NCBI GenBank assembly: GCA_019693395.1
Contig: JAAMXP010002940.1
Span: forward strand, 1 to 23,884
Direction: 5' to 3'
DNA length: 23,884 nucleotides
Source: Ettlia oleoabundans
Lineage: Eukaryota; Chlorophyta; Chlorophyceae; Chlamydomonadales
Notes under the pieces: generated by a model
What the model saw: the letters and a program-made list of their open reading frames with translations, nothing else
What the model was told of the DNA's origin: nothing
Database searches by the model: none
Shown here: in pieces, positions 1-23,797 of the stretch
How the letters are laid out: the number at the start of each line of letters is the position of its first letter
Numbering within the stretch: position 1 is the first letter of the stretch
Translations under genes and position numbers: made by a program

Positions 1-20
1 CCCTCATCCCCACCCCGCAG

Positions 21-791
21 CGCCAAGGGCCACCTGCTTAATGCCGGCATCTGCCAGCTGTGCTCCGCTGACGTGGCCACCATCCGTACCGCGCTGGAGC
101 GGTACTGCGACATAGACCTAAACTTTGAGAACAGCAGGGAACACAGCTTCCTGGTGGTGAGCTGCAGCAGCAGCATGCGTGCCACAGATTGGTCTTACAA
201 TAGGAGAAACAGCAGGGACATGCAGCAGCTGTTTGTGTGGTCCAGGAGGGAAGCTGGGGTCTCAGATCATACTTGGCAGATTGTGGCACAAGCAATGAGT
301 AGCGGCCCGGCTATCATCCGCACCTTTGCATATCTTGTTGGTCCTCAACGCTTTCTTCTCTTACTCCTTTCAACAAACAGGCCCTGACAGAGGCGCTAGA
401 GGCGGGTGATGTGGATGAGTTCACAAATGCGGTGGCGGAGTTTGACTCGTTGACACGGCTGGACACGTGGAAGACAACCATGCTGGTGAGAACCCCACTG
501 GCAGCAGAATGGGCGGTGGGTGCTGGGTGATGGGTGGGCGAGGTGGTGGTATGGGTGTGGGGTGGGGTGGGGTGGGTGGGTGGGGGGGCATTTGTGCCTG
601 CGCAGGCTGTTTCTTGCTGTGGAAACAGTGTGAGCCCATCAGTGAGGAGAGCAAGTTGATTGGCAGTGGTGCGCTGTTGCATGTGGGTGCAGTGCTTTCA
701 GCTGGCCTTCCTTACAACCAGTGTGCTGCAGGTCCGCGTGAAGCGCAAAATATCGAGCAGGGATGAGGTGGAGGAGGAGGATTTGACGTGA
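21..791 (+). CDS. alpha-SNAP (soluble NSF attachment protein), C-terminal exons, 5' partial
   Basis: Alpha-SNAP binds assembled SNARE complexes on membranes and recruits the ATPase NSF, which takes them apart after vesicle fusion. Three coding exons are visible: 21-156, 381-485 and 732-791. Their phases agree, and the introns have GT-AG ends (donors GTGAGC and GTGAGA). The spliced product reads AKGHLLNAGICQLC, then RYCDIDLNFENSRE, EFDSLTRLDTWKTTML and finally the acidic tail EEEDLT before TGA. Known family features matched are the SRE motif in a late helix, the EFDS-x-x-x-LD-x-W-x-TTML stretch, and the acidic DLT-type C-terminus of plant alpha-SNAPs. Only about 100 of the usual roughly 290 residues lie here; the rest is upstream of the window. 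The CCCCGCAG at 13-20 is the acceptor of the preceding intron. The gene converges on copy 1 of the unknown family. The identification is strong. Confidence 0.93.
553..588 (+). other. G-rich quadruplex-type tract in alpha-SNAP intron 2
   Basis: Seven closely spaced runs of three to seven G, separated by one or two bases, lie on the coding strand inside the second intron. This satisfies the usual four-run pattern for an intramolecular G-quadruplex in DNA or pre-mRNA. Confidence 0.75.
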
Positions 792-1693: not shown

Positions 1694-2871
1694 TCAATGC
1701 ACAGGGACGGCAACATGCTGTGGCGCTGGGCTCAGCATGCCCTTCAATTTATAAAGCCAGCCATCCAGAGGGCTGCCGGCCATTGTGGGTGTGCCGGAAC
1801 TGCTCTGACTCCGCCCGCTAGAGGTGGAGCATGGCGGCAGCGGCAGCGGAGCTGTGCCCACCATTGCCATTTCGATGCTGCTGGTCCCGCACACAGCCGG
1901 AGCGATTAGGTGGCCGACATGAGCCGCCGGCTGAGCATCAGCATGGGCAGTAAGCCGGCTGCGTTTGGCTGGCTGCTCCAGCACTTTGGGCGGCGTCACA
2001 GTGCACTCCAGCGTCGGTGGCGGTGCATCAGCGACTCTGCTGCCAGCCGGGGGTGATGACGCTTCTGCTTCTGCATCTGTTGCTGCTTCTGCTGGCTGTG
2101 TTGGTGGAGGTGGTGCTCGTTGTGGCGCTGCTGCTGCTGCTGCTGCTGCTAGGGGTGCGGGGGCTGAGGTCGCGATGGATTTTGACGAAGGCAGCTTGCT
2201 GATACATGGGGCTGATACATGCACAGTGCGCAGGTACACAGCAGTCTCCCCGGGTGGCACGCCGTTCAAAGACCGTGGTAGACTGACGGTCAGCTCTGGT
2301 CGGCCGCGGCGCTGCAGCAGCTGGCACGGGCGGCCTGTTGCCACCGATTGCTGGCGCCAAGCGAGGTCCCCTTTCGCCGCAATCGATCTGATGTTGTAGG
2401 CCAGCTGCCGCTCCCTGAGCATGTAGTAGACTGCGGCACGGCAGAATGGTCGGTCGGGTTCCAGTTTCAAAATCAACAAACTGGTGTGCAGCTTGTACTA
2501 CAGGTGAAAGTTTTCAAGGGTGGACGATTGGACGGCCAAGAGTTGAAGCACCAGCAAGGCTGGAGCGGCAGCGGGACGGGCGGCTGCTGGCGTTGCCCAT
2601 ATTGGGGGACAGCAGCACACCAGGCGATCCCACCTGTTGGCGACTGCAATCCTGCTGGCCAGAGGTCGATTGCGCCCGCTGCATCCCTGCAAGCGCAGCG
2701 GGCCGCGTGGGCGTCAACGGAGGGGGATGCAGTGACGGGTCTTGGACTCGACCACCAGATGTACTCTCCGCACGGCAGGCCAGACATTGCTTGCCTGCAA
2801 TCTGGGACCTCCCGGCAGCACGACACACAACGCCGGCAGCCCGCCTGCGGTAGGTTGAGAGCGGTGCTCAT
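1694..2871 (-). CDS. Unrecognised Cys-motif family protein, copy 1
   Basis: I do not recognise the family. The model has three exons, 2795-2871, 2634-2686 and 1694-2430, which join in frame to 288 residues ending in TGA. Exon 1 gives MSTALNLPQAGC followed by the cluster C-x2-C-V-x-C-x6-C. The middle exon is 53 nt and ends in LWPAGLQSPT. Exon 3 opens with VYYMLRERQL, followed by AWRQQSVA and LLQRRGRPELTV, about 75 residues likely to be one folded domain. An Ala/Pro-rich linker then carries the basic motif EQPAKRSRLT, and the C-terminus has LYKLKGMLSPAP. The Cys cluster and basic motif suggest a zinc-binding nuclear protein; this is inference. The first intron (2687-2794) begins with GC inside the consensus AG/GCAAG. 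Its 108 nt also leave the frame open if retained. The ATG was chosen because copy 3 starts at the matching place. The exon structure is firm; the function is unknown. Confidence 0.7.
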
Positions 2872-3232
2872 CCGGTGGTAGGCCTCTTAAGTGCAAGTAT
2901 GACAAGATGCAAATTAAACAAATGAATGCAAGACGAAAAAATCAAAAGTGGTATAAGCCAGGTCCCAAGCCGGGCTCGGGGCAGCGCGTGGAGACCGCGT
3001 TGTGTGCCCCTCCTAGGAGCCTGACTCAAAGGGGCACCTTTACCTCATCAGGGGTTAATGCATTTTGAGCTTTGGAACCATGCGCAAATAGGATACGATC
3101 GTGGGAAAGCTGGTCACCAACGGGAGCACGCCCATCGACGCATGCGCTGCCGTTGGCCCTGCCGCCAGCGGCCCTTGAGCATAAGCGCTTCGAAAGCTGA
3201 GCGAGACTCAGTCCATTGTTGTATAACCAAAT

Positions 3233-3237
3233 TTACA
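3233..3237 (-). terminator. UGUAA polyadenylation signal, copy 2
   Basis: TTACA on the + strand, 505 nt downstream of the copy 2 stop codon, the same distance as in copy 1. Confidence 0.45.
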
Positions 3238-3448
3238 GTTCATCACGTGTTCATATTCAAAACTTTCAAAGAAGGAAGGTGACAATATTGGTTCATCCTC
3301 ATCAAAACTAGGGCCAAGCACGGTTGACATGAAAAACTGTGGAGCGCAGTCAGGGTGGGCTACAAGCCAAGGAACGTGGAAGGGTGTACAGATTTTATTT
3401 AACAAGTGAGTAGGGGTGCATCAAAGTTGCATCCGGAATATGCCTTTA

Positions 3449-3472
3449 ATGACGGAGCAGATGACGGAGCAG
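3449..3472 (+). repeat. Tandem 12-bp direct repeat
   Basis: ATGACGGAGCAG occurs twice head to tail. It lies in the presumed 3' UTR of copy 2. No function is evident. Confidence 0.8.
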
Positions 3473-3741
3473 ATACTGGACAGCAGGTGTCATGGGAAGG
3501 ATTCACAGAGCAACGAGGATTGCGTTTATAAGGTCCCTCAACTCGGGACATGGAGAGACTTGAAAAAGCACGGCGGCATTGCCGCGACTACACCAATCAA
3601 CGTGCCAGCAGTGCCAAAGGGGCAAGAGCAGGCAGACAAGCAGGCAGGCGGCGCCAACAGCTCAGCGACACGACCGTCGTGATGTGACGTATAACAGGTG
3701 CAACATGCAGTGGCAGCAGGAAATTATCATTTAACGTCAAT

Positions 3742-4842
3742 TCATGCATACATTTGCAGGTTTACCTCATTCAGAATCTGTTGTAGGAAGCATTGAGCAT
3801 TCAATAGGCACTGTTCAGCAGGTGCCGACAGCGGCGGCAGGTGGGGCGGGCTCAACATGCGTTTCAAATTCCGCAACAGGGCTGCTAGTGGGACTCTATT
3901 CACAGCACGGGGGCCACAGAGTGGTGCACATACAGCGGGCTGGCTGCAGCCATTGGCAGCTGGCAGCTGCAGGGCGATAACAAGCGGGCCGGGGGTGAAG
4001 CCGGGGGCGATGAGGTGCACATCTGCCACCCCTGCTGTGCTGCCGTGTGGCGCTGCTGGGCGTTCTGCTGTTGCTTGCGCTGCCGTATCATTAAGAAGCA
4101 CGGCGGCCTGCTCCTGCAGCCGTGGCGGCGTGTCCTTGTGTGTGAGTGACACCGCTGCCATTGCTGCTGTCGCTGGACTCGCCTCTGTATTGGTTGCCTG
4201 CTGCGGCTTCGGGCAAGCACCCACCGGCTGTATGGCATGCACAAACTTTATGCTTGCGTTGGACCGCATGCCACTGCCTGCGGCAAGCGGCAGCTTGACG
4301 GTTAGTTGCAGGCGGCTGCGACGCTGCAGCAGAGCGTTGGGGCAACCTGCCGCCACTGAGTGCTGGCGCCAGGTGGCCGCGGCACCCGCCATTTCGGCAC
4401 ATTGTATGTTCAGGTTGAGCTGACGCTCCCGCAGCAGGTAGTAGACTGCAGCATAGGGTAGATGACATAGGGTGACCAGGTTTGATAATGCAGGGGCCAA
4501 GCACGAACGGCCCACAACGGCCCACAACGGGGGACAGCTGCAACTGTGGCACTCTGGGGGCGGGGCCTGCATGGCGGAAGGCCGTATCGTGCCTTACCCG
4601 TCGGAGATGGCAGTCCTGCAGGCCACATGTTCATAGTGCCGTCTTGGCTACTGCACAAGGTTCAAACCGAAGTTGGTCACTTGGAGCTTGAGCGCGGGTC
4701 AACTAGATAGGGGTGTCGTGCAGAGTATGATCTAGAACATTACAACCGAGGCACACCTGCATACGGTGAGTTCATGGCACGCAACGCAGTGTCGGCAGCT
4801 CTTCAGCCCGCGTCCCGTTGGGAAGGGACGGGTGTGTCCCAT
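3742..4842 (-). CDS. Unrecognised Cys-motif family protein, copy 2
   Basis: Second member of the family, in tandem with copies 1 and 3. The exons are 4757-4842, 4598-4650 (53 nt) and 3742-4445, joining to 280 residues with a TGA stop. Exon 1 reads MGHTRPFPTGRGLKSCRHC and continues as C-x2-C-x2-C-x5-C. It then splices at AG/GTGTGC, because the frame runs into a stop soon after. The middle exon ends in MWPAGLPSPT. Exon 3 begins VYYLLRERQL, followed by LNIQCAEMAGA, TWRQHSVA and LLQRRSRLQLTVKLPL. The linker keeps TPPRLQEQ but has lost the KRSR motif of copies 1 and 4. The C-terminal LLRNLKRMLSPP motif is present, followed by about 30 extra residues. It shares IQCA-x-M-x-GA with copy 3, so the two look like the more recent tandem pair. 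Function unknown. Confidence 0.7.
4508..4528 (+). repeat. Short tandem repeat in copy 2 intron 2
   Basis: The unit CGGCCCACAA is repeated twice in a row inside the second intron of copy 2. It is probably slippage without function. Confidence 0.55.
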
Positions 4843-5961
4843 TGCGGTATGAACTCTGGACGAGGTTAAACGGACCAAACCAAAGACATATGCGACGATG
4901 TGCTAAAAGGAAGGCTGCTGACAGAAACGATGGTGGGTGACACGTGGAAGCACTCGCAGATGCTTGGGGTTTAGGCGCTTTTCTTCGCCTTCTCGTCCAT
5001 AAACACATTTTGGTGTCGCCAGCAACCGTCGACTGTGGGCAACAAGGTGTCCTGAGCCCTGCAGCTGACCGCCGTCTCTCAAAATAACTCTCCAGCGTCT
5101 GGCGTGTCTGGGCCTGCTAATACAATCAAACTAGTGACAGCGCATAACAAAGTGGTGTTTAGCTTGGTTGGTTTTGGGGGGCCTGACTTGTTGGGCTTGG
5201 GGCAACCACTACAGCGGCAGCGGCAGTGGGTGGCATGTTGATGGCAACGTCAGCAGATTGAGCATGCAAACTCGGTCGGGGAGGCAGAAGAAGGCAGGCA
5301 GCGAGGGTCCCACACATATTGCATCAATGTCACAGTAAGGTCGGACCCGCTGTCCTTTGCAAGGGCGCACACGCAAGGCTCTCTGACAAGTGCCCCCGCC
5401 TGCCTCACATCTCTTGGCTGTGCCGTTTGAGTCAGAGAGCAGTTACAAGGAGCTACGAGCTCTGAATTTCACGCTTGAATGGAAGCTTGCAAAAAATGGA
5501 AGCAGAATTCCTTTCAGTACAGCCATCATGTCAATACGACTGCTGAAAGGAGCAATAGCAGGGGGGAATCCAGGGTGTTGCGGGTCAGTTCATTGCAAGG
5601 AGGAAGGGCGGTCGGCTGAGGGCCCATTGGTCGCTTTGGTGGTGGATGCCTGGGTGCATGGAGGGTGGGTAAGTGGGCGCATGAGCGAAAGCAAGAGGAT
5701 CTGAGGTAGCCCCTAGGTAAGGGGGAGGGTTGACAACGGGTTGCGCTGAGGCCGGCGGCGTGCGGCGTTGATGGCTGAGAGGGGAGATGATGAGCGGAAG
5801 ATGCATCGGAAGGCCACTGAGAAAAAGCAGTGACAGGGAACAGACAGAGACACACTGTGAAACAACAAACAACAGCACAGCTGTGGAAAAAGGGGAAAAG
5901 GGTCGCCAAAACCGGGAAACAACAAGAACAAGCAAGGGAAGCAGGGAAACGCATCAAGCGC
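4843..5961. other. Copy 2 upstream region and copy 3 3' region
   Basis: About 1.1 kb with no supported gene. The half nearest copy 3 is presumably its 3' UTR (UGUAA at 5443-5447 on the - strand), and the half nearest copy 2 its promoter. No TATA-like element or strong repeat was seen, and the open frames here lack family resemblance. Confidence 0.4.
5443..5447 (-). terminator. UGUAA polyadenylation signal, copy 3
   Basis: TTACA on the + strand, 515 nt after the stop codon of copy 3, close to the spacing in copies 1 and 2. Confidence 0.45.
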
Positions 5962-6961
5962 TCAGCAGGCACACAGGGCGGGGGGCTGCAGCGGGGGGGT
6001 GATGATGACCTTGAACCTGCGCAGCAGCACTGTCAGCGGGCTGTGATCGGGCGAAGATCCAGAACGTGGCGTGGATGCGGCGCTGCGGTGGCTGTGGCTG
6101 GTGGCAGCCGACAGCGGCATGCCGCTGATATGAGAGTTGGGGGAGGCGATGAGTATGGCCAAGTGCTCTGCCGCTTGCTTGGGCGCTGCTGCAGCTGCAT
6201 TGCAGATGTACGTCGGAGCCTGCTCCTGCACCTGGGGCCGCGTGTCCCAGTTCGTGCTGGGGGCTGCTGCTGGTGGGGCCGTGGCTGCTGCTGCCGTTGC
6301 CGCTGGTGCTTGGGCGGCCGCTGGCTGCTGCAGCTTCTGGCACACCCAGGCCCGCTGCATCTCACGCACAAAGACCAGACAGTCCCCTCGCTGCAGGCCG
6401 CTGCCTGGGATCAGTGGCAGGTTAACGGCCAGCTGGGGGCAGCCGCGGCGCTGCAGAAGGGCGCAGGGGCGGCTCGCCGCGGATGATGCTGGGCGTCGCC
6501 AGGCGGAGGCTCCTTGCATTTTGGCACACTGGATGTGCAGGTCTAGCTGGCGCTCCCGAAGCTTGTAGTAGACTGTAGGCGAGCGAGAGAAGGCGGCAGC
6601 GAGAGGCGAGCGGTCAGGTGATGCAGTCAACAAGCAGGTGAGTGGTGTACAGAGTTGGCAGCGGCAGCGGCGGCGGCAGGCGGGACTACCAGGCGCGGCC
6701 CCTCAAGCCCCTGGCTCTCACCTGTCGGGGAGCTCTGTCCCGCCGGCCACATGTTCACCGTGGAGCCTCGGTTTCTGCAGCAGGGAGAAGGGGAACAGGT
6801 GTGTTCGTCAGCCCCCGCGGGCATGGCTGGTCATGATCGGGGCGCGGCCAGCGCAGGTTTGCAGCCTTCCTAGGTACATCAGCGCACCTCATCTTGTCGA
6901 ACCGGCAGTCTACACAGTGGCTGCAGCCCGCGGGCCGCGATAGGGCTGTGAAGTGGCTCAT
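5962..6961 (-). CDS. Unrecognised Cys-motif family protein, copy 3
   Basis: Third tandem member. The exons are 6888-6961, 6722-6774 (53 nt) and 5962-6572, giving 245 residues with a TGA stop, the shortest of the four. Exon 1 reads MSHFTALSRPAGCSHCVDC. The only phase-compatible donor I find, AG/GTGCGC, splices just before the codon for the fourth Cys, so this copy would keep three cysteines rather than four. The middle exon ends in MWPAGQSSPT. Exon 3 has VYYKLRERQL, IQCAKMQGA, LLQRRGCPQLAVNLPL and GDCLVFVREM, then a linker with QVQEQAP but no KRSR. It ends with LLRRFKVIITPP. Divergence in the otherwise constant W-R-Q-x-S-V-A segment (here WRRPASSA) and the lost Cys suggest relaxed constraint, although the reading frame is intact. 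Function unknown. Confidence 0.65.
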
Positions 6962-7818
6962 AGGGGGCGCTGCAGACCAGCTGGTCTGTGTGAATGGTGT
7001 TGATGGTGCACTTTGGGCTCGCCGTAGCGCAAGCGTGCAGACAGCCGGTTGAACAACATGGGAATGGCCAGTGGACGGCCAAGTGAGGGAAAATCCTTTA
7101 GGAAAGGAAGTGCCTCGGCTTCAACGCAGCTGCGCACAGCTTTGTCGCCCCCACTGCATGTTGGGTTTTTCTTCCTATGCCCCCCGGAAACACTAGAAAT
7201 CGCCGAATGCGGCTGTCGCGAGCGTGAACCCAGGCCACTAGGCGCAGTCCCAAGGGTTGATCGACCACTTCCCTCCTTGTCCCCCCCCCCGGCCTAAGTA
7301 CTGACTCCAGAGTTGCAGGTAGCTTGAAGTGTTCACGCTTCTGTCAAGGGTGTGGATTGTGAAAGCCCCAATTCTTGCCAATTGCAGCTGCAGCGGATTA
7401 ACCCCAACACCTAGGCGTGGGCGGCGGGTGGAATGGCGTCCAGCCAAAAACGCAAATGCCACACCAGTTGTGAGGCCAGGCCGCTGCAGGCAAAGCAGCT
7501 CCCGAGGGTTTCAGCTCCCTCAAGTTCCCCGTAGCCTATTACTAGATCCCGGCAGCTCTGTTACAGCACTGGTCACAGCGCACAATTGTCTCAACAGTTG
7601 CACTTTGTTCCTCTGCAGCAAGGCGCTCCAAGCCAGCCAAGTGCGGGGCAGCAAAAGATTGAAATGCAAGTAGTGAGAGTGTGCCAACAAGAGCGCTGAT
7701 GAACAACTAGCTGGAACCACCAACGGGACTGTTTAGAGGGAGAAAAGGGTTCTTTGAAGTGGGGGCTGCCGGCTAGCTCTGACGCCGCCATTGCCAGCTG
7801 CTGCTGCTGCTGCTGCCG
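6962..7818. other. Copy 3 upstream region and 3' region of the AP2-like/SAND-like gene
   Basis: No supported gene. The part just above 6961 is the presumptive promoter of copy 3. The part below 7819 is the 3' UTR of the next gene, with UGUAA at 7561-7565 on the - strand. A run of ten C lies near 7280-7289. CAG-type repeats continue from the coding end of the upstream gene into 7780-7818. Confidence 0.4.
7561..7565 (-). terminator. UGUAA polyadenylation signal, AP2-like/SAND-like gene
   Basis: TTACA on the + strand, about 255 nt beyond the proposed TAG stop at 7819-7821. Confidence 0.4.
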
Positions 7819-10800
7819 CTACAGTTGCTCCTGTTGGCGCTGCTGCCGCGGCTGCTGCTCTTGATGTCCTGGTGGCGATGCATCCAAGGCCTGCAGTGCT
7901 TCCAATATCGCCGCCACTGCAGGATCGACAACAGGAGGCACGAGAGTTGGGACTGCAGGATGACACAGTACCTGACAGCGACAAATGGCAAGAAGGGCTG
8001 CCTGCTGGGCCTGCAAGGAAAGGGGCACAACAGTGATATGAATGGTGCCAAAATCATGCAGGCGAAGCAGATGAGCAACTTCCCGCCCTGCCTCCAAACA
8101 CGGGCCTGGCAGCGGCTCTTCCAGCATGCCGCCCACAGACCTTGTGCCACAACAGCTGAGACACAACCAAATATCACCCACAGCGGCCTGCCTCACGCTG
8201 CTGCTGCGTCACTCCGCCCTCCAGGCACCAGTTGCGCCCCTTCATGTTCACAGCCGCCGACCGCCACTTGTGCCCCGACCACGCCAAGTGTACCGCAGTG
8301 GGGCGAGGCGTCACCTGCGGCTGCAGCTGCTGCACGTGCGCCCCCTGGGCCAGCACCAAGCACTCGCACCGGCGGCTGCAGGCAGCGGGTGAGCGGCAGC
8401 CCACCACACAAGCGGGGACCGGGTGTGAGGGCTAGTCAGGAAGGAGGGGTGGGGAGTAAGCATGCAGCCTGCTGGTGATTGCTGGGTGGGGGAATGCATA
8501 GCTGGCAATCTTCTTCACAAACCCTGATATGTCGGCTCTAGTAGACAGGGCACAGCCAGGCATGCACAGCCAGGGGCTGGCGGCGGCTTTGGGAAGCTAG
8601 CTAGCTGGATGGCTCACCTGGCTTTCCGGGTGTCGGAGCCAGGTTGGGGGTGTGGCGGCTCCGCATGCAGCACCAGCAGTCGCTCCATGAGCGCCAGCCC
8701 CCCCACGCCGCGGCAGTTGCGGCAGTACAGCAGTACATCTCCCGGGGCGGGGGACATGACCCCAGCGGGGGACGGCGACTGTGGCGGCTGCTGCAAGGGG
8801 TGAAGATGAGGGCTGGGCTGGGGCGAGGATGGGCCTGCTGGCGGGCGCGCTCTACCATTGCTGCCTGCTGCCGCCCCAGCTATCTGATGCATTACCACAG
8901 CAAGCAAATCCTGCAGGCCGCGCAGGGCAGGAGGTGGAGGCCCTGACGCAGCTGCAGCTGCCTCCACAGCGGCGGCGCCCGGGCACGCCCACTGCTGCAC
9001 CACTTGCGGCTGCAGCTTGTGCCCTTGATGCTGCTGCTGGTGCTGCTGGTGCTGCTGGTGGTGCAGCGCTGCTGGGGGCTGCTGCATTGGGTGCAGTCCG
9101 TTCTCCTGCTGCTCCTGATGTCCTTCCTGCTCCTGCTGCTGCCCCTCGTCCTCTTGCTCATGCCTTGCCTGCCGTTGTTGCTGCTGCTGCTCCCCCCCTT
9201 GTTGCTGCTCTTCCTGCTGCTGCTGACGCTGCTGTTGCTGCCTTACCGGCCAACCCTCTTGCCGCTGCTGCTGCGGCTGCCGCGGCTCCTGTTGCTCCCC
9301 TGGCGCCTTATCATCCTCATGCTCCTGTGCGCAACCGCCCTCCCCGCATGCCGCCAGCAAGTGAAGGCCATTGCCCGACACCTCCTGCTCCTCAAATTCT
9401 TTGTCAGCCAGCAGCTTGTCCGCCTGTTGCTCAGCAGCAGCCGACCCTGCCAGTCCAGCAAAGCTGCCCACCAGCTGAATGGGCGGCAGCTGAACAGCAG
9501 CACCAGGAGGGGCCGCCGTGGCGCCACTAGGCAGCAGCAGGCATGCCACTTCGTCAAGCCATCCGCAATCCCGCAGCGTGCGTAGCGTGACGCGCAGCTG
9601 CTCCAGGGTCCCGGCCTCCCTCAGCAGCTGCATCACCTGCTCGTGCCCGCAAAAGCTGCAGGGCAGGGCGGCATGCAGATGCATACAGCAGGTGGTCCGT
9701 GGGTCGGGAAGCTGCCGCTTGAAGACACCACACCCAAGCGCACTCGAGAGGCTTGACATATGTGACAGGCATGGTGGGTGCTGCCAGCAGGCAGCCAGGG
9801 AGCTGCAGCAAGCAAGCAAGGCATGGTGCGGAAGGCGACTTCCTGGCACCAAATTACTGCGCCATCACTGCAAGGACAGCGCGTACAGCCCGCCCCCCAG
9901 CCACCCACCTGTCCCACGGGAATGGCGTGGCCTCTGTCGGTTGCAGCTCCACACCACGCACCCCCTGCTTCCACAGCAGCGCCAGCGCGAGCCCCACCGC
10001 TGCGCCCATTTGCTGTTGGCAGCACACTGTTTGGCGCCACTGGATTGAGCAGCCTGCCTCGGGCCAATGCATGTTGGCCACCCACACCCTGGCTTGCGCG
10101 TTCCAGCTGATGCCACAGAACTGAGGGACGGCTCCCGTGCCACGGCTGGCTGCAGGCGCTGCTGCGGTGCCCGCACTCGCTGCTCCTGCGCCCGCACTAG
10201 CCGCCGTCGGCAGTCCGCCTGTAGCGGGGGCAGGTCTTGCTGTTGCTGCCGGTGCTTTGTGGCTCCGCGGCCCCTTGGCAGCAGCTGGAGCCACACGCTG
10301 CTGAGCCCCTCTGTTCTTCTTCTGCTGGTTAGGGTGTTGATGCCGCTGGTTGCGTTGCAGTGACCGCTGCGTGGGTGGCGCCCCAACCGGCTTGGCAGAC
10401 AGCAGTTCAGGCAGCCACTCAGATTTCAACCAGCTGGCATCACAACACGGCACACCGGCCACCCACGCCTGCCCCTGCTGCCGTGATCGAAGCAGCCAGC
10501 TGTTCATGTGCTGCTGCCAGTCAGCCTCACAAGGCAGAAAGGCTGCCGCCACAGCGATTGCTCGGCTGCTGTGTGCACGCTGTGCATGCTGGGATGCCGC
10601 CGGGCCCCGGTCGCTGTCTGCCCCTTCTGAGTCTGGCGTACACTCACGCAGTCTACCGAGCCTAGAGCGTTGCCGCCTGATTGGCACTGGCTGCTGCTCC
10701 ACCTGCTGCTGCTGCTGCTGCTGCGCTGGTTGCTGGGACGACTGCTGCCGCCCGGCAGGCTGTTGCCGCCCGGCGGGCTGTTGCTGCCCGACCGGGCCCT

Positions 10801-13339
10801 GCAGCCGCTTCTGTGGCGCCCTCTTCCTGGCTGCACCACCCTGCCCGACCTCCTCCTCCTCTGCCGGCCGCTTGCGCCTGTAGCCGCTGCTAGTGGCGGC
10901 AGGGCCCTGCGCTGTGCTGGGTGCTGAGGTGGCGGCAGCATCTGCTGGGTCGGGGCAGGGCTGGGGCAGCGGCTGATCTGCATCGTATGCTCGGGCTGCC
11001 AGCGACAGGAAACCCTCCACCTGCGGTTGCCAAGGGCGGCAACAACGACCAACACAACCATCAGCAAGGGGTTGGGTGACGCATCAGGATGACAGCATGG
11101 AGCTGGAGCACAGGCAAGGAGAGCTAGCCCTAGCTTATAATATAGTGTGCAACATCAGCGGTGGGTGCAAGCAGCAGGGAGCCAAGGATGTTGGTTGTGG
11201 ATCATGCGAATGCTGTGGTTGTGAATAAAACCTGTGAATTGGGGCTCTGGGAGGAAAGCAAACCTGCAGCTGAGCCAAGTATGCGATTAGGTCGCGCCAG
11301 GTGGGCAGCTCTGACAGCATGCAGGCCAGAGACGCATCCTGGCAGTACCTGCAAGAACTATATGATAGTACCACGACGTTGAAAGGCAGTGCAATATTGC
11401 TACGAGAATCAATACAGCGCCAAAGCATTATAATGGCAGGCATGTAGTGCAGCGTGATGTGCACAAGCAGCGGCAGGCACCGGGACGTAATGAGGAACGA
11501 AGCACACGCGTCATTGTTGAGGTGTGCAAGCAGCACAAGCCGACAGCAGGCGGAGGCGCCGCTTCAGTGTTTAAAACCGCGCCGTCGCACCGGCGCACTG
11601 GAAAGTTGAACACGAGGCGGGGTGGGCCCCCATTTGTCGCCGCCGGCTGCGGCCCAGCCTGCCACTCGTGCCAGATCAGCGCCAAGTCGCGCAGCAGTGC
11701 AGCCTCTGCAGAGGAAGACCGTGCCGCCGAAAGATTCCAAACAGTAGAAATGCTGGCCAATTATTAAAGGGATGGCAGCGTAACGGGCATGAAATGGGTA
11801 GGGGCAGCATATCACCGCCACAAGAGCATGAGGTGTTGGGGCTGAGGGTGCTCTCAGCTGCCCTGCATGCTGTTGCTGCCAGCTACACCTGTCACGCAGA
11901 ATTGTTCCAAGCGCTTGAGAGGAACCAAAGGCCCCTTGCTGCCGCTATGGCCCACAAATATCAGTGTTAAATGAAGGTGCAGCCCAACACTTTTAGACAA
12001 GGACAAGGGTTGCTCTGCTGTGCAGCTCACCTAGCTCGCTGCCTGTTGCAAGGACCTGCCGCTCAGCCCGGGCCTCATTCCGGGGTCTCCCCTGATCATC
12101 CAGGCGCAGAGACACGTGTGCCTGCCAGGCCCCGCCAGCCAGCCTGACTCCCAGATAATCGCTGGCCGCCTCCCCTGGCCCCAAGCTGCCACTGCCGGTG
12201 CCGCTCACGCTGCGAGTACCGCCTGCTGCTGCTAGGCTGGTGGGTGCTGGTGCTGCTGTCGGGTGCGTGGCAGCAGCGGAATGTGGTGCTGGGTCTGCGG
12301 AGTGCATAGCTGCAGCAGCTGGGGCGGCCTGGCCGCCGTCTGAAGCCCCCCAGCTGGTGGGTGCTGCCTCTTCACTCAAACTGCCACCGGCCTCGCCGGC
12401 ATCTGAAGGGCTGGGGCGGTCGCGGATGGGTAGTGTGGGTGGCCCTGCTGCCTGCTGTTGTGCAGGTGTAGGCACAGGCGCTTCACGGCTGCCTGCCAGC
12501 ACCGGGACCGGCGGCGCCCTTGTGGCATGGCGCGGTGCAGCCGCGCTGCCAGCCTCATGCCCTCTGTCCCCTTCTGCCAAAGGCTCGCTCTTCACGACAC
12601 CAGCCAGCTCTTGAGCCTCTGTGGCTGCTGCTGGTGATGTGGCAGCCGCTGCTCCGCTAGGATGCGCCGCGCTGCCGCTGCTGCGGGCCCCCTGCCCTGC
12701 GGCGCCGCTGTCGCCAATAGCCGCTGCCTGGCCTGCGCTCTCCTGAAGGCTGCTGATTAGCTCCTCCACGCTGCATTCCCTCAAGATGTCCAGCATGCCC
12801 TCAGCGCCCCAATCAACGACATCCTCCTCATTTGCACAGGCCTGCAATACACGGCGGCGATGGGTTGGGCGGCAGGCAAGGGGGACGGGGGCGGACTTGG
12901 CAGGCTGGGCCGCTCTCACCTGCGGCAACTCCCTGGCAATCTCGTCGGCCTTTTCTGCCAATCCGGGAGTGTGCAAGCAGTAGTGCAGGCGAAGGAGTCG
13001 TAGGGCTCCCAAAGCCTGCCCCTCCTCATCAAAAATCAGTTCCGGTGTGACATCCGGGCCGGGAAAGATCACTGCCCAGTGGTCGTTGTCCCGCGCTTCC
13101 ACCCGGCCCGGCAACATCGTCGGTTTGAGAACGAAGGCCTTGTTCACAGGGCCCCTGAACCTTTCAACAACACCACTTTCGGTTGTATCTGCAACAATGA
13201 AGCGACCACCAGTTCTTGCCTAGTTCTACGTGGTGCTGCCAGGTTGGCTGCCGTCATGGCAGAGGAGCTTGCGCAGGGGCACTTTGCGCTGAGGGCCGCC
13301 TGTCAGCAGCAGACAGGAGTATGCAATGTGCCCCGCCAT
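7819..13339 (-). CDS. Putative transcriptional regulator with three AP2-like modules and a SAND-like region
   Basis: The proposed exons are 13283-13339 (doubtful), 12920-13219, 12031-12841, 11591-11705, 11264-11348, 9909-11020, 8618-9655, 8229-8375 and 7819-8155. All phases agree and give about 1,330 residues. Module 1 (about 50-145) has HWAVIF and IFDEEGQALGAL. Module 2 (about 346-457) has YLGVRLAGGAWQAHVSL, LATGSELEAALLRDLA and FNFP. Module 3 (about 755-860) has FCGISWNAQARVWVA and TPFPWD. These resemble AP2/ERF folds (W-x-A, E-x-AA-x-x-D-x-A, NFP) in degenerate form. Basic stretches YRRKRP and RKRAPQKR could be nuclear signals. A Gln-rich linker (about 900-1100) precedes YCRNCRGVGG, RRCECLVLAQ and HKWRSAAVNMKG, which recall the SAND domain of algal RegA-like proteins. 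Of these calls, AP2-like is moderately sure and SAND-like tentative. The 5' end is uncertain: ATG 13339 needs a 63-nt intron to remove two TAG codons, and the first uninterrupted ATG is at 13117. The 8156-8228 intron is also a best guess. Confidence 0.6.
8229..8750 (-). other. SAND-like Cys/Trp region, split by a 242-nt intron
   Basis: GDVLLYCRNCRGVGGLALM and MERLLVLHAEP come from the end of one exon. RRCECLVLAQ, VTPRPTAVHLAWSG and HKWRSAAVNMKG come from the next, joined in phase 2. SAND domains of plant ULTRAPETALA and algal RegA-like proteins have a Cys-x-Cys element, then a T-P-x-x-F-x-x-H-stretch and a K-W-R/K-x-S core. Here Cys-x-Cys, TP, His and KWRSA occur in that order. The Phe and spacing are not standard, so this is tentative. 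Confidence 0.4.
8720..9400 (-). other. Gln-rich low-complexity linker
   Basis: CAG/CAA runs on the - strand encode a linker dominated by Gln with scattered Glu, Arg and His (for example QQQQRQQQQEEQQQGG). It separates AP2-like module 3 from the SAND-like region. Such tracts are common in green-algal regulators and are probably disordered. The + strand of the same DNA reads as a leucine-rich frame, which is an artefact. Confidence 0.75.
11591..12163 (-). other. AP2-like module 2 (best preserved), split by an intron
   Basis: The clearest AP2-like unit. SDYLGVRLAGGAWQAHVSL is encoded up to 12031. After a 325-nt intron, GEL-type phase-1 joining gives SELEAALLRDLALIWHEWQ, and the unit closes with PRLVFNFP. 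AP2/ERF domains run from Y-[RK]-G-V-x-x-x-x-x-x-W-x-A through E-x-A-A-x-A-Y-D-x-A to L-N-F-P. Here the tyrosine, glycine-valine, W-x-A, double Ala, Asp-x-Ala and NFP landmarks survive, while the central strand is atypical. Confidence 0.55.
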
Positions 13340-14124
13340 GGCTATAATCAAGCGACAGGGCTATATGACGAACAGCTTGATCATCAATACTACATCAAAT
13401 GCTCAAACTGCCAATCGTCCATTCAACAGACAATGCAACACCCGTTGCGGCCATCAGTGTTGAATGATTAGTGTCAGTCACAAAAAGGCCTGCAGTCACT
13501 GTCTGTAAGACCGGCAGCATAATGCGCTTTAAGGTTGAAAAGGCAATGCCACAAGTGGGACTCTGGGTGACGTGGAGGGCGGTGGATGGTTGGATCCACG
13601 CTCCGGAGCGGTGCAGGTTGGCAGCAGCGGCTTCGGGCTGGAAATGCTGTGCCTTGTGCCTGTTCCCACGGCCACCAAAGCTCATGTGCTCCTTTCAAAA
13701 GGGCCGAGAAATTATCCCCCGCTGTGGTTTTGCTTATTGAATGATAACTGCAGCAGGTTTTGTGCGCTGGCGGCGGACTGGCATAGCGGCGATTGCCTGC
13801 AGCGCCCAAGGACAGCCAGGTGCGGGCCCTCTGCACAACCAGTACTGTTGAAAATAAGTCTTACACGCGGGGGCGGCATATTGTCCGTCTAGTCGAGCAG
13901 CGGTAGCGTTGGAGAATGCGATGGGTTAGGTCAGGTTACGCGCGTGTGAACCTGACGGGTAGCTACAGGTCACTGCCCCCGGCCGCCCTAGAAAGGCTGC
14001 TCACCGTGTTGATTATATGAATCTAGCCAACGCTTTTCATCAAACGTCCATTTTCTATATATTTTCCAAGCAAGAACCACGAGTCTGTGCCTTTGCTTGC
14101 ATAGCACCGCTTGCGGTCTCGACG
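13340..14124. promoter_or_regulatory. Divergent intergenic region between the AP2-like/SAND-like gene and copy 4
   Basis: About 785 bp between two genes transcribed away from each other, so both promoters should lie here. The side near copy 4 is locally AT-rich (14010-14070) and contains TATATAT. The opposite side has no obvious TATA element. Open frames on the - strand (for example from ATG 13685) have no clear splice path into the downstream gene. Confidence 0.45.
14056..14062 (+). promoter_or_regulatory. TATA-like element upstream of copy 4
   Basis: TATATAT lies in an AT-rich patch about 63 nt upstream of the chosen ATG at 14125. It supports starting there, because the in-frame ATG at 14017 lies upstream of this element. 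Confidence 0.4.
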
Positions 14125-15216
14125 ATGCCGCGGCTTACACTAGGGTGCCGCCACTGCGTGACATGCCACAAGATGGACTTGTGCGGGTGGGTTTTGCCTG
14201 GGCCCGCAGATACCGGACCGCGTGATGAGCCGGCATGTCCATGCTGCGCTGCGTCATGCAAGTCTTTAATACCGCTCCATCGTGCACCATGCTGCAGAGA
14301 CAAAAGAGGTGCAATGGTTATGTGGCCCGCGGGCTTGCAGTCGCCGCAAGGTAACTTCCCGCTGTTGCTGCCGCCGCCGCTGCCGCTGCCAGGAGCATAG
14401 TTGCCAGTGCCACAGCAACAAGTGCAGCCATGTTCACTCCACATATATCTGAGTTGCTCATCGCCTCGCGCGCTTTCTGCTGCAGTCTACTTCATGCTGC
14501 GTGATCGCCAGCTTGCCCACACCATCAAAGCTGCCGAGGAGGAGGGGCCCGCCGCCTGGCGGCAGCGCTCGGTGGCGGCAGGCCAGCCCTGCAAGCTGCT
14601 GCAGCGCCGCGGCCGCCCACAGCTGACCGTCAAGCTGCCGCTTACTGCGGGATATGGCGTGCAATACGGCGACCGTGCTGTGTATGTACGTGCAGTGCAG
14701 CCCGCTCCTGCCTCTTGGTGGCGTGGCAGCCTGGCGGCCCCAGCCTCCACAGCCCCCAAGCCAGCAGCAGCAAGCGGGTCAGCAGCAGAGGCTGCCCCCC
14801 CACAACCCTCCTTCCCTGCACGGGACTGCCGTCTGCACATGGGCACACCGCCGCAGCTACTGGAACAGCCCGCCAAGCGCAGCCGCACCACGGTGGTGGC
14901 GCAGCCCCATGCAGCACTAGCCCCCGCTGGCCCCGCCCTTGCCTCACACCCGATCGGCCACTTCATCGCCGGCGCAGCACCCAGCAGACGCAGCGCATGC
15001 AGCGCAGCGCCAGTGGTCATCCCCATGCCGCCCTGCAGCGGCAGCAGCAGGAGCAGCAGCACCAGCAGCAGCAGTAGTGCATCAGTCTCGCCGGCCTCTA
15101 CCTTTCATTCCGCCGCCTCGTCTGCTGCCGCCAGCCCGCTGGTCGCTTTCTTCAATCGGGTGCGAGACATGCTCAGCCCTGCCCCACAGCTCGCTCGTGG
15201 CATCGCAGCTTACTGA
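14125..15216 (+). CDS. Unrecognised Cys-motif family protein, copy 4 (inverted)
   Basis: Fourth member, on the opposite strand to the others and about 7 kb from copy 3. The exons are 14125-14186, 14298-14350 (53 nt) and 14486-15216, giving 281 residues and TGA. Exon 1 reads MPRLTLGCRHCVTCHKMDLC, a C-x2-C-x2-C-x5-C cluster. The middle exon ends in MWPAGLQSPQ. Exon 3 begins VYFMLRDRQL, then AWRQRSVAAGQPCKLLQRRG, QLTVKLPL and YGDRAVYVRAVQ. The linker carries EQPAKRSRTT and a Ser-rich tract, and the C-terminus has VRDMLSPAP. The KRSR motif groups it with copy 1. The first intron (111 nt) leaves the frame open if retained and would add a CPCC and further cysteines. An in-frame ATG at 14017 is an alternative start. 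No UGUAA is seen downstream; AATAAA occurs at 15617-15622. Function unknown. Confidence 0.7.
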
Positions 15217-16218: not shown

Positions 16219-19200
16219 TCAGGTCTCCCTGGGCTGGTGTGCGTCGTGGGCAGGGCCGGAGGCGTTGCCCCCATCCAGGTTCTGGCTCGTTGCATCCTGG
16301 AAGATGTCCTGCGCATCGTGGAAGGAGGTGGTCTCCCGGCCCACACGCACACCTGTGCCTGCGCCGATCGCCGCAGAAGCGGCAGCGGCGGCGGCAGCGG
16401 CGGCGGCAGCCGCCTCAGCGGAAGCGTTGGTCGCAGCGGTAGCAGCATCATAGGTGTAGACGGGCGCTGTGGCTGCGAGGGGCGGGGGAGGAGAGGAGGG
16501 ATCAGCCTGTGAGGGGAGAGAAGCGAAAAGGGCAGTAGCGAAGCAAAGCAGTAGCGATGCAGTCAGGCAGGGCCCAACATACTGTGCGTGGCAAAAATGG
16601 CATGGTGCTCTTTCGAGTTTATCGCTGTAATGTGTGGTGCAACCATTGTGTGGGCGACGCCACGACAAGACCCTGGTGCTGCTGGTTGCCGCGGCTGCCA
16701 CAACTGTTGCAGCTGGCAGGCAATGTTAGTGCCCCCGCCGTGCTGGTGCTGTTCTCACCGGAGCTTGATGCGGGCTTGCCGCTCTCAACGTCGCCAACCT
16801 CCACTTCACCCTCCTCCTGCAAGCACAGAGGCACGACAAATGTAAAGACGTCTGAAGACATTTAGGAGCAGGAGCCGCACGAGGCAAGATGGCAGAAGCT
16901 CATAAGCAGGGTACGTAAGTAGATAGAATGCCGCCATGGGAGGCTTCAGCGGGCAATTTGACAGGTTTACGCCTTGGCGCTGCTGGGGTCGGCAAGAGGC
17001 AGCAACCCTGTCTATGTCACATGTAAAGATACCCAACCCCTTTACGAAGGTACCTTAACTACGCCTGATACCAAGTCAGTCTGCCTATGGCGTCACACAG
17101 CAGCCGGCCAGCTGGCACCAGCTCAGCTCACCGAGTCGTTGGGATGAGCAAACAGCTTTTCGTCCTCGCCTCCAGCCAGCACAGCAGACATGCGCCCCGC
17201 CTCATCAAGGGCCTGAGCGTGCTCCTCCTCACTGCAGGGCGGCAGCAGCCAAGACGTGAACAGGAGGGGGGTTGGCGGGACGTCATTTGGCAGCAAGGCA
17301 AGGCGAGTAAAGAGGCGCAACGCAGGGGCAGAAAGGGCATGGTCATCAAGGGTAGCCAGTGAGAACTGAGAAGCAGCTCGGCTCGTGCATTCCCATCTCC
17401 CAGCCCACCCTCACCACAGCAAGAGGCATAAAGTCTCCCTTGATGCCTTCCCGAGTTGAAGACAAAACTAGCACAAGCCAGGGTCAAACTGGAAGAAGAA
17501 TCCACCCTGGTCCTGCTTTTATAAGGGGCTACACCCTTGTCCCACCCACCTGAACTTGAATGATGGCGACACGTAGCGCCCGCTCACCTCCGCCTCAACC
17601 TCCTTGGCAAGCAGCCGGGAGTCGCCCTGCACACCGCAGCATGAACACAGCGCAGCGAAGCACATCAATGTTTCTGTGAAGCACGACATAACGTGGTAAC
17701 AGGTGCATATAGCATCATACCAAGTCCTGCTCCCGCAACCACCAGTAGCATGGTTGTTCAACAACCACCCACCTTGGCGGCCCTCTCACGGTTGTCCATC
17801 TCTGCAGCGCTGATGAGCGACAGACACTCCTGGGGACGCCAGAAACGCTTGTGGGCGGCAATCCTGCGCACCAACAGCGGGCGGCAGCGGCGGCATGAGG
17901 TCGGATTCACGGCAGCAATTGCAGCTCGCCGCCTTCAGCCTGCTCCTCAGAGCGCAATACCTAGGCAAGGAGGACGCGGTGCCCATCTCCGGCATGCTGG
18001 CACCCGCCAAACACAAGCATTCGCACACATGCACGTGATGGTGGGCATGCTGCGCAGCACTGCAGCTACCCACCAGAACATGAAGTCGACAGGGAGCAGA
18101 ATGAGGACGAGTATGGGGGCGCCGACTGACTCCTTGAGGCCCAGCAGTGCCATCATCATGACGTGGAAAATGACCATGCCCAGCATGCACTGGTCAAACA
18201 CCCGGGTCCAGACCTGCAACGAGGGTGGGGGCGCGGGGATGGGGGGGGGGGGGGAGGTTGTCAACTGACAAAAGCAAGCATACAAGCAGCCAAACAGGCA
18301 AAGATGGCAAACCTAGGGTCAAGCAACCTGTAACTCGTGATGCTGCCCACACTGCCTGGCTCACCAGGCCGCCGCTCTGGTAGGTCGGGTTGTAGACGTA
18401 CACCTGCTGGTACTTCCTGCAGCAGTACAACAGTACCACACATGAGGCGGCAGGTGGTATGGCCATAGAAGCGGCAATGCAGAAGCTGCTACCCGTGCTC
18501 CTGCCTGGCCTGGCCGGGCATTGAACAAATACCGGAGCTGCACCCTCCCAAGCAACAACCACCCGACATGCCAGCAGCAGCCCACAATGTGCCCTCACCA
18601 GACGATGTAGTTGAATGCGTAGTAGGCCACAGCCACGGGGGTGATGATGGGGCACACAGTGCAGAACACCTGCGCGGGTACAGGGTGACAAGGTGGCGTC
18701 AGTGCGTGGGAATGGTCAGGAGCAGTTGGGCGACCGAGTTGAGGGAAATGGCAGTGGGAGCTGACTATTTTGCTAATAATACGAGATTGAGTTGAGACAA
18801 TGGGGTTGATTACAGCTCTGTGCAGCCTTTGCCTGCACCCACCACCACCCAAGCATGTCACCAGACTGTGCAGTGACCCACTCACAATGCCCAGCAGGAA
18901 AGCAATGGTGTCATTGGGGATGACTGTGCCGTACTTCATGCTCTGGTCCTGCCACAGGCGCGCCTGCAGACACACATGATGAGGAGGGGGTGGGGGCCGG
19001 GGATGTTTAGCAAGATGCAGGACAAGGTGGGCGAGATCTACTGTGCCCCAGGTTTGATATTCAGACGTAAAAAGCACTTGGCAAAACCCATCAGGCATTA
19101 GGCTCAAACCGCCCGCCCACCTTGGCCCGCTCTGTGCCCGCCAGGAAGCGCGACTTGATCCAGAAGATGATGAGCGGGACGATGCGCATGAGGGTCAGCG

Positions 19201-22200: not shown

Positions 22201-23797
22201 CAAAGCCGTACGGCCACACAGCGACAATGAGGAAAGCGTCGGTCTCCCTCCCCCACTCACCGCCGCCAGGTCCTCGCCATAGATGCGCCTGAACTCTGCC
22301 TCGATCATGCCCTCAACGCTGCCCCCAGCCGCAGCAATCTGCGAACCAAGGTGGTGTGGGTGGCATGGCACGAGTTTGGCAAGTTGTTAGGAAGCCTGCT
22401 ACCAATACCATCAATAAATAGTTGGCCTTAGTCTACACATCCTCCCTTGATCTCTCCCCTTCTTTGGCCCAGCATGCCACGCATGCCGCACTTTCCGTCT
22501 TCGCCCAGCCCTTTCCCCAAAACGCTTACTCACCCCTTCCACCGCCTCGGCCCATGCGTCGCGCATCTCGAAGCGTCCGCTGCCGGCGTTAAGCTCCGCA
22601 CCCTGCCGACCCTGGGCATCCAGGTTGGCAGCCTCTGCAGACATGAGGCAGGACAAGAGATGCAAGCAAAGGCTGGATCTTGGTCCTGTTCGTCTGGCGT
22701 GGCAATTTGATATCAAGTCTGTCATCGGCTGGTAAACAATGCAGGGGTAAGCAACAGCCGATGATGATCAGTACACGTGCATGCTCCAATGGTCAGATCA
22801 ACCAGGCCCAAACCCTCCACCAGGCCTGTCATACACCCAGGTTGTACCCTGCACGTGACTGTAACCACTTTGCCTGCCACCCTCAACTTCAGCCCAACCC
22901 AATGCAAATCCTGACCAACCCACCACACAACACTACCAAACAATTCTGAATACGCACCCAGATCATCACCCCTGGACGCAGCAGCAGTCAGGCTGGCCTC
23001 CACCCTGCCCGCTCTCTTGGCCACAGCAGACCTGCTGTTCTGTGCCAGGGCTGCAGTCTGCTGGTAGGCCTTCTCCTTGACGCCTGTGGGCAGCCAGGCA
23101 ACATTGGTCTGATAGTTGAGCTCAAAACAACCGTCCCAATCATCGTCAGTTGAGGACCGTTTGCTGGAGGAAGGCAGAAACATTTGCAAAGCTCTGTCCA
23201 CATCGTTCTCAGCGCTCCTGCCAGCCCATCGCAGCCCAGCCACCCCCTTCAACCACTCACTTTTGGGCAGCAGCCTTAGCAGCGTGCCGTCGGCACGGGC
23301 GGGGATGGTGCCATACACCACACCCGGCACATCCTGGCACAGCACGGTGTGGCTCTCTGCGCCCGCCGGCTGGTTGAGAAGGTAGAAGATGCGCAGACGC
23401 AGCGCCTCTTTGTTGTACCTGCAGGCGGGACAGGTCCGTTATGACAGACAGTACAAAGGCCAGCACGGGTCCCAGGTGCTCCAGTGCAGAAGGAGTGAAG
23501 CTGCAATACACCACAGAGTAGCTGGAAGAAAGGAGTAGGAAGGCAGGGCGCTGGGGGCTGACGCCAGCGCCGCCTCCACCTCGCATGCTGTGGCTATGTT
23601 GTGCCGCTGTGCATGCTAAGCCCCCTGCTGAAGGGGCCCAGTCGGGCGCCGCTGGCCCCAGGCTGGCTCCGTCCTCACACTGCCTCACTGCCCCACTCAC
23701 TTCCAGAGCACGTAGAAGGCAAAGAGTGAGACGGCCCAGGTGACCAGGGCGTGGGCCCACAGCCGTGGGGAGCCGGGCGGGATGTTGGAGATGGTGG
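16219..23797 (-). CDS. OSCA/CSC1-type (DUF221) hyperosmolality- or mechano-gated cation channel, 5' partial
   Basis: OSCA/CSC1 proteins are TMEM16-fold membrane channels that pass Ca2+ on osmotic or mechanical stress. Twenty-four exons are visible, among them 23701-23797, 23261-23418, 22958-23163, 21870-22004, 20934-21051, 20639-20741, 20347-20458, 19121-19225, 18074-18213, 17773-17863 and 16219-16472, coding about 845 residues. In order: HALVTWAVSLFAFYVLWKYN at the end of an N-terminal membrane helix; the cytosolic domain with CQDVPGVV, a charged helix (LVAEYQKLRQ) and NVFPAAFVTF; AEEIFWPNLGF; then a membrane core including FFMIPVTAVQGL, LKIFLILVPIF, FITMMNK, QLQQFINDPG, NDTIAFLLGI, CPIITPVAVAYYAFNYIVW and LILLPVDFMFW. 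RFWRPQECLSL starts a soluble, acidic tail with 12 consecutive Ala. The family match is strong. Phases agree at every junction except 23261/23163. The N-terminus lies beyond the window. Confidence 0.93.
18241..18254 (+). repeat. 14-G homopolymer (C-tract of a channel-gene intron)
   Basis: An uninterrupted run of G on the + strand is a C-tract in the channel intron just upstream of the acceptor at 18214. It probably serves as the pyrimidine tract and is prone to slippage. Confidence 0.8.

What the first reader, a model, noticed from the sequence alone, without database searches (positions are those of the whole stretch)
1694..15216. Four-member family with an invariant 53-nt middle exon and no recognisable function
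Copies at 1694-2871, 3742-4842, 5962-6961 (- strand) and 14125-15216 (+ strand) share C-x2-C-V-x-C in exon 1. Each has a middle exon of exactly 53 nt in phase 2/1 encoding G-x4-WPAG-x-x-SP, and an exon 3 opening with VY[YF]-x-L-R-[ED]-R-Q-L. All also share LLQRR, a P-x-x-x-E-Q linker motif and an LK/VRDMLSP-type C-terminal motif. Open frames and exact exon phases kept despite large sequence divergence argue for selected, functional genes. I know of no family that matches.
Basis: partly seen in the sequence, partly recalled or inferred. Interest (0 to 1): 0.78.

Follow-up and report, generated by a model that had tools for sequence, protein, structure and literature searches.

The report
Uncharacterised Chlorella-type nuclear protein gene family
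Four neighbouring green-algal genes belong to a fast-evolving, unnamed protein family that occurs as predicted proteins in several Chlorella-type algae and looks like a set of small nuclear regulators, but whose job is still unknown.

Summary
Four three-exon genes lie where stated; exon 2 and exon 3 are alike in all six pairs, introns and flanks mostly not. A profile of outside proteins hits the four exon-3 frames at E 1.9e-63 to 3.1e-38.

It is not a four-member family. This 32.9 Mb genome holds two more copies; three protein searches gave 32 relatives, those with organism names from Chlorella vulgaris, C. sorokiniana, C. variabilis and Micractinium conductrix. The middle exon is 65 nt in the two other copies: phases are kept, length is not. 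Pfam, NCBIfam, PHROGs and PDB gave only chance-level rows; both AlphaFold models are poor.

Architecture: CxxC[VL]xC plus a fourth Cys or His five or six residues on (10 of 11), a mostly helical WPAG/VYY core, a linker with a nuclear-import-like motif (32 of 38, absent from copies 2 and 3), and a C-terminal amphipathic segment beside SP/TP. I infer small nuclear adaptors or regulators, possibly nucleic-acid-binding (0.45). Ordinary in kind, unnamed as a family; the tree suggests at least four paralogue lineages predate the split from C. vulgaris.

The parts
1694..2871 (-). Copy 1: exon 1 2871-2795 (77 nt), exon 2 2686-2634 (53 nt), exon 3 2430-1694; 288 aa; nuclear-import-like EQPAKRSRL; intron 1 begins GC
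3742..4842 (-). Copy 2: exon 1 4842-4757 (86 nt), exon 2 4650-4598 (53 nt), exon 3 4445-3742; 280 aa; no KRSR motif
5962..6961 (-). Copy 3: exon 1 6961-6888 (74 nt), exon 2 6774-6722 (53 nt), exon 3 6572-5962; 245 aa; no KRSR motif and no fourth Cys/His
14125..15216 (+). Copy 4: exon 1 14125-14186 (62 nt), exon 2 14298-14350 (53 nt), exon 3 14486-15216; 281 aa; KRSR motif, MLSP segment
14146..14184 (+). Putative metal site of copy 4 in exon 1: C-x2-C-V-x-C-x5-C
   Evidence: metal binding itself is inferred
14486..14703 (+). Conserved core of exon 3 in copy 4 (VYF...RAVQP), the most conserved part of exon 3

Best explanation
A cluster of four functional genes (three in a row on the minus strand, one inverted 7 kb away) of a lineage-restricted green-algal family. 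Each encodes a protein of 245-288 aa with an N-terminal metal-site pattern (Cys3 plus Cys or His), a compact mostly helical core, a proline/alanine-rich linker that in most members carries a nuclear-import-like motif next to a TP site, and a C-terminal amphipathic segment between SP/TP sites. Most likely they work as small nuclear regulators or adaptors: the N-terminal part binds a nucleic acid or protein partner, the import motif places the protein in the nucleus, and the C-terminal segment recruits another factor, with proline-directed phosphorylation as a possible switch. Shown: gene models, family, motifs, a pattern of change that fits selection on protein. Inferred: splicing, metal binding, nuclear location, partner binding, phosphorylation. 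Copies 2 and 3 lack the import motif and may have diverged in role or location.
For: Exons conserved, introns and flanks mostly not. Changes over all 15 pairs of the six copies in the exon-3 core: codon positions 1, 2, 3 differ at 0.370, 0.362 and 0.526; pN/pS 0.50-0.81 in the core and 0.62-0.79 over exon 3, 15 pairs each. Profile of outside proteins E 1.9e-63 to 3.1e-38. CxxC[VL]xC in 11 of 38 rows, shuffled rate 0.001; a Cys or His 5-6 residues on in 10 of these 11: Cys in c1, c2, c4, P0003, P0004 and His in c5, c6, P0007, P0028, P0029. K[KR]x[KR] in 32 of 38, shuffled rate 0.032; in the alignments it mostly follows a TPPxLxEQ-like motif. SP/TP in tails 167 against 126 expected, highest of 200 shuffles 151. 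C-terminal segment: hydrophobic moment above the shuffled mean in 27 of 28 measured, mean z 1.24; both models place a helix there. Tree: c5 with a C. vulgaris protein 100/97, c6 with P0018 and a C. vulgaris protein 97/99, c4 with C. vulgaris 005830 and P0012 96/94.
Against: No function-bearing homologue was found. The AlphaFold models are poor (mean pLDDT 57.0 and 59.9; pTM 0.32 and 0.25), so neither a metal-bound fold nor a DNA-binding fold is shown. Copies 2 and 3 lack the import motif, copy 3 also the fourth ligand. CxxCxxC is also compatible with an iron-sulphur site (recalled). The C-terminal segment could be measured in only 28 of 38 rows, and the pattern that picked it already asks for hydrophobic residues at spaced places, so the moment is biased upwards. 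pN/pS is not low, so constraint is loose, and synonymous sites are near saturation. No expression data.
Confidence: 0.45

Rival explanations
1. The proteins are DNA-binding transcription factors of a new zinc-and-helix domain type.
For: Cys/His metal-site pattern, basic residues in the VYY-LRERQL helix, nuclear-import-like motif and a C-terminal amphipathic segment resembling an activation or repression peptide.
Against: No sequence or fold match to a DNA-binding domain; the family evolves fast; copies 2 and 3 lack the import motif.
Confidence: 0.2
2. A redox or iron-sulphur protein family: CxxCxxC plus Cys/His holds a cluster, and the KRSR motif is not used for import.
For: Three cysteines within seven residues; one His as a ligand is known in some iron-sulphur proteins (recalled).
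Against: Cys/His exchange at one position is more usual for zinc (recalled); K[KR]x[KR] is in 32 of 38 rows; no match to such families.
Confidence: 0.12
3. Former genes in decay, or frames open by chance in GC-rich DNA (antisense frames are also open).
For: Long antisense frames overlap the copies; copy 3 has lost several motifs.
Against: The exon-3 frames of all six copies are open over 606-732 nt; the sense frames match proteins predicted in other algae; introns and flanks have mostly diverged while exons have not.
Confidence: 0.05
4. Copies derived from a mobile element or a virus gene.
For: Several copies in one genome, four of them on one 24-kb contig.
Against: Six copies found in 32.9 Mb, each with two introns at the same phases in my models; no relative among viral contigs, phage records or bacterial and archaeal genomes, each call with one query and limited sensitivity.
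Confidence: 0.03

Closest known systems
Hypothetical proteins of Chlorella vulgaris (D9Q98_000495, D9Q98_009528, D9Q98_001246, ACK3TF_005830, ACK3TF_005823), C. sorokiniana C2E21_4080, C. variabilis CHLNCDRAFT_136637
   Same: Same core and tail motifs; E 1.6e-52 to 2.7e-44 for six of them and 2.4e-26 for D9Q98_001246. In the tree the C. vulgaris and C. variabilis proteins group with window copies or with the two other copies.
   Different: None has an assigned function. The C. sorokiniana protein falls in a group without any copy of this genome. P0002, P0005 and P0006 start inside exon 2, P0001 inside exon 1 and P0027 inside exon 3 as annotated, so the Cys motif is missing from these models.
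Micractinium conductrix protein named citrate synthase methylcitrate synthase (P0007)
   Same: Full member including CxxCVxCx5H, WPAG, VYY and EQPAKRSRL.
   Different: The name fits nothing seen in the sequence; it looks like an annotation error. No Pfam domain is listed for it.
Small zinc-site (Cys3-Cys/His) nuclear proteins in general (recalled class, not a test)
   Same: Short Cys/His cluster, import-like motif, low-complexity linker, short C-terminal recruitment-like segment.
   Different: The spacing C-x2-C-x2-C-x5-[CH] matched no Pfam family in these searches.

Membership tests
Chlorella-type WPAG/VYY family (defined here) | Core VY[YF]-x-LRERQL ... AWR ... LLQRRG-x-P-L ... P matched by a profile of outside members | tested here: met
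   four of four window copies at E <= 3.1e-38
Chlorella-type WPAG/VYY family (defined here) | Exon 2 with WPAG, entered in phase 2 and left in phase 1 | tested here: met
   six of six copies in this genome as modelled; length 53, 53, 53, 53, 65, 65 nt; no transcripts
Chlorella-type WPAG/VYY family (defined here) | EQPAKRSR-like import motif in the linker | tested here: inconclusive
   in c1, c4, c5, c6 but not c2, c3; K[KR]x[KR] in 32 of 38 rows
Cys3-Cys/His metal-binding domain | C-x2-C-x2-C plus a fourth Cys or His at fixed spacing | tested here: inconclusive
   10 of 11 rows with the Cys motif, copy 3 lacks the fourth ligand and copy 1 has spacing six; metal binding not testable here
Helix-turn-helix of the excisionase/MerR type (considered from memory for TVYYMLRERQL) | Match to a Pfam helix-turn-helix model | tested here: not met
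   no such model among the matches at E <= 10 for 15 members; the second model gives one long helix there
Citrate synthase (name on P0007) | Citrate-synthase domain | tested here: inconclusive
   no Pfam domain is listed for P0007 and no citrate-synthase model is among the families matched by the alignments that hold its core; its full length was not scanned here

The most novel reading that the evidence does not exclude
A new class of green-algal transcription or chromatin regulators built on an undescribed zinc-and-helix DNA-binding domain, restricted to Chlorella and its kin, with paralogues older than those species and with Cys/His ligand exchange marking two subfamilies.
Probability: 0.18. 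Interest if true: 0.6.

Novelty: new member of a known kind. Interest (0 to 1): 0.36.

Why it matters
It shows a small unnamed, nuclear-looking gene family kept in several paralogue lineages across Chlorella-type algae, which are used in biotechnology. It gives a list of members and testable parts (metal site, import motif, C-terminal segment). As a kind, lineage-restricted, clustered families of unknown function are common, so the general lesson is modest.

Tried and rejected
Known-domain reading: Pfam, PHROGs, NCBIfam, PDB sequences and PDB folds (52, 53, 67) gave only chance-level rows: Pfam VERL 0.093 (one of six proteins), KAAG1 0.044 and Pellino_RING 0.19 (one of 22 each), PAGK 0.029 and DUF6093 0.043 (one of 15 each); one PHROG at 0.096 and one NCBIfam model at 0.27 (one of six each); PDB a Cas3 chain 0.084 and a photosystem repair factor 0.28, none; folds none, one row at E 6.1. 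A helix-turn-helix resemblance of TVYYMLRERQL was considered from memory and dropped (model). An Fbw7/Cdc4-type degron reading of TPPxLxEQ was considered from memory and dropped, as the conserved acid lies at +6 and not +4. An AP2 resemblance of the gene between copies 3 and 4, seen by eye, was tested and not met. Rfam gave nothing in the window. Literature by gene name: none of seven locus tags found; two topic searches listed nothing that I recognise as this family (listings and abstract starts only, no paper was opened). My first genome pattern asked for the wrong bases before TGG; its 19 matches are not used.

Limits: two of three protein searches scored only the 7,995 and 7,997 candidates sharing most words, so the family size is a lower bound. 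The tree used 28 of 32 outside proteins; P0009, P0014, P0023 and P0032 were left out because their models look like intron read-through, or are very long or short; P0024, P0025 and P0028 sit on long branches. Alignments used parts of the set: A2 19 of the 25 proteins then known plus six copies, A4 16 of 32 plus six copies, A5 26 of 32 plus four window pieces, A6 nine of 32 plus six copies.

Full report
Check of the observation. The window is contig C849 of a 32.9 Mb genome in 1,230 contigs. The named relatives of these proteins are from Chlorella and Micractinium, so I take it for a Chlorella-type green alga (inference). Gene models were built for each copy: copy 1 2871-2795, 2686-2634, 2430-1694; copy 2 4842-4757, 4650-4598, 4445-3742; copy 3 6961-6888, 6774-6722, 6572-5962 (all minus); copy 4 14125-14186, 14298-14350, 14486-15216 (plus). 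The middle exon is 53 nt in all four with phases 2 and 1. Copy 1 needs a GC donor. Minor corrections: copy 3 has G-x5-WPAG and ends IITP.

Beyond chance. Pairwise comparison of the segments against 20 shuffles gave, of six pairs each, above all shuffles: upstream 0, exon 1 4, intron 1 0, exon 2 6, intron 2 2, exon-3 core 6, exon-3 tail 6, downstream 1. A profile of the 32 outside proteins hit the four exon-3 frames at 1.9e-63, 3.5e-57, 4.5e-40 and 3.1e-38; the next frame had 0.0075 and the best of the reversed window 2.7. The outside proteins had been found by searches that began with the copies, so this is not a fully independent test. Exons 1 and 2 are too short to score well by that profile: the frame holding exon 2 of copy 2 had 0.0096, of copy 1 0.11 and of copy 4 0.18; exon 2 of copy 3 is not in the list. 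Codon positions 1, 2 and 3 of the exon-3 core differ at 0.370, 0.362 and 0.526 over 15 pairs of the six copies, and pN/pS is 0.50-0.81: constraint is present but loose, and synonymous sites are near saturation.

Family size. Six-frame searches of the genome with three family queries found the same six places each time; a fourth, more divergent query found these six and one row at E 0.289, which I do not count. The two extra copies are on C753 (exons 13223-13305, 13435-13499, 13660-14333) and C458 minus strand (49944-49844, 49734-49670, 49506-48770). Both have a 65-nt middle exon with the same phases. So the phases are shared and the length is not. From protein lengths alone, the C. vulgaris members P0003 and P0004 should have 56 nt if the splice points are kept (inference).

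Relatives elsewhere. Three protein searches returned 25, 6 and 10 rows, 32 different proteins in all. Those with an organism name are from C. vulgaris (five), C. sorokiniana, C. variabilis and M. conductrix (one each); P0028 is from EukProt without a species shown; the other 23 show none. In nine of them (P0009, P0010, P0014, P0015, P0016, P0023, P0024, P0025, P0032) the residues just before VY (EY in P0023) are not those of exon 2; in eight the residue before is Ala and in one Val, as expected if an intron ends GCAG or GTAG at that place. This suggests that intron 2 is shared widely (inference from protein letters). No relative was found among viral contigs, phages or bacterial and archaeal genomes, each call with one query.

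Tree. With 34 rows (six copies, 28 of 32 outside proteins) the window copies group with C. vulgaris 005830, 005823 and 009528, C. variabilis, P0008 and P0012 at 98/94; c4 lies with C. vulgaris 005830 and P0012 (96/94), c2 and c3 are sisters (96/82) with P0008 and C. vulgaris 009528 next to them (93/90 for the four), c5 pairs with C. vulgaris 000495 (100/97), c6 lies with P0018 and C. vulgaris 001246 (97/99); c1 is not resolved against C. variabilis. This suggests that at least four paralogue lineages (c4; c2/c3; c5; c6) predate the split from C. vulgaris, and that c2 and c3 split later; the c2/c3 link to C. vulgaris has only 93/90.

Anatomy. Of 38 rows (32 outside, six copies), CxxC[VL]xC is in 11, which as far as I can tell are the rows whose models reach that part of exon 1; of the 11, 10 have a Cys or His five or six residues on. 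The Cys form is in c1, c2, c4, P0003 and P0004, all inside the 98/94 group; the His form is in c5, c6, P0007, P0028 and P0029, all outside it. Copy 3 has neither. The K[KR]x[KR] motif is in 32 of 38 (shuffled rate 0.032), absent from P0012, P0024, P0027, P0032, c2 and c3. HL[IVL]A is in 30 of 38 (0.014); a loose form of the C-terminal motif is in 27 of 38 (0.016). SP and TP in tails number 167 against 126 expected. The C-terminal segment could be measured in 28 of 38; 27 have a hydrophobic moment above their shuffled mean, mean z 1.24, but the pattern used to pick it favours such segments.

Structure. Two AlphaFold2 jobs (P0003 with the 31 other outside proteins; P0029 with 25 others and four window exon-3 pieces) gave mean pLDDT 57.0 and 59.9. 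Only the core is moderately confident (blocks of 74-89 over residues 51-100 of the first; 75-88 over residues 31-60 and 86 over 71-80 of the second): a helix within or after VY[YF]-LRERQL, short helices, and a less sure C-terminal helix. Foldseek found no PDB match for the first and one meaningless row (E 6.1) for the second. So the fold is not known.

Mechanism. I favour small nuclear regulators or adaptors: N-terminal metal site and helical core for a partner, import motif in the linker, C-terminal amphipathic segment for recruitment, proline-directed sites as possible switches. Gene models, family and motifs are shown; splicing, metal binding, location, partners and phosphorylation are inferred. 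The lack of the import motif in copies 2 and 3 speaks against a uniform nuclear role. The DNA-binding version is possible but unshown.

Known or new. No model in the libraries used covers it, and none of seven locus tags appears in the papers searched. The named relatives are in public databases as hypothetical or uncharacterised, apart from P0007, which bears an enzyme name. I rate it as a new, unnamed family of a common kind: a lineage-restricted, clustered family of unknown function.

Noticed in passing
window 1-790, + strand: C-terminal exons of an alpha-SNAP (NSF attachment protein) gene; a roughly hand-joined piece matches PF14938 at 8.5e-32.
   Followed up: partly
window about 18595-21357, - strand: Frames that resemble a channel of the OSCA/CSC1 type: weak matches to RSN1_7TM (0.0032, 0.034) and PHM7_cyt (0.0063), all below the curated cut-offs.
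   Followed up: partly
window about 8600-13220, - strand, between copies 3 and 4: Long glutamine- or alanine-rich open frames with two GVR/GIS-W-A-like stretches that look AP2-like by eye but match no AP2 model.
   Followed up: partly
P0007 (Micractinium conductrix): A member of this family carries the name citrate synthase methylcitrate synthase, probably an annotation error.
   Followed up: partly
window 22722-23438, - strand: A 238-aa open frame without Pfam match.
   Followed up: no
window 2794-2789, start of intron 1 of copy 1: The splice donor aligned with the other copies is GC (GCAAGC), not GT.
   Followed up: partly
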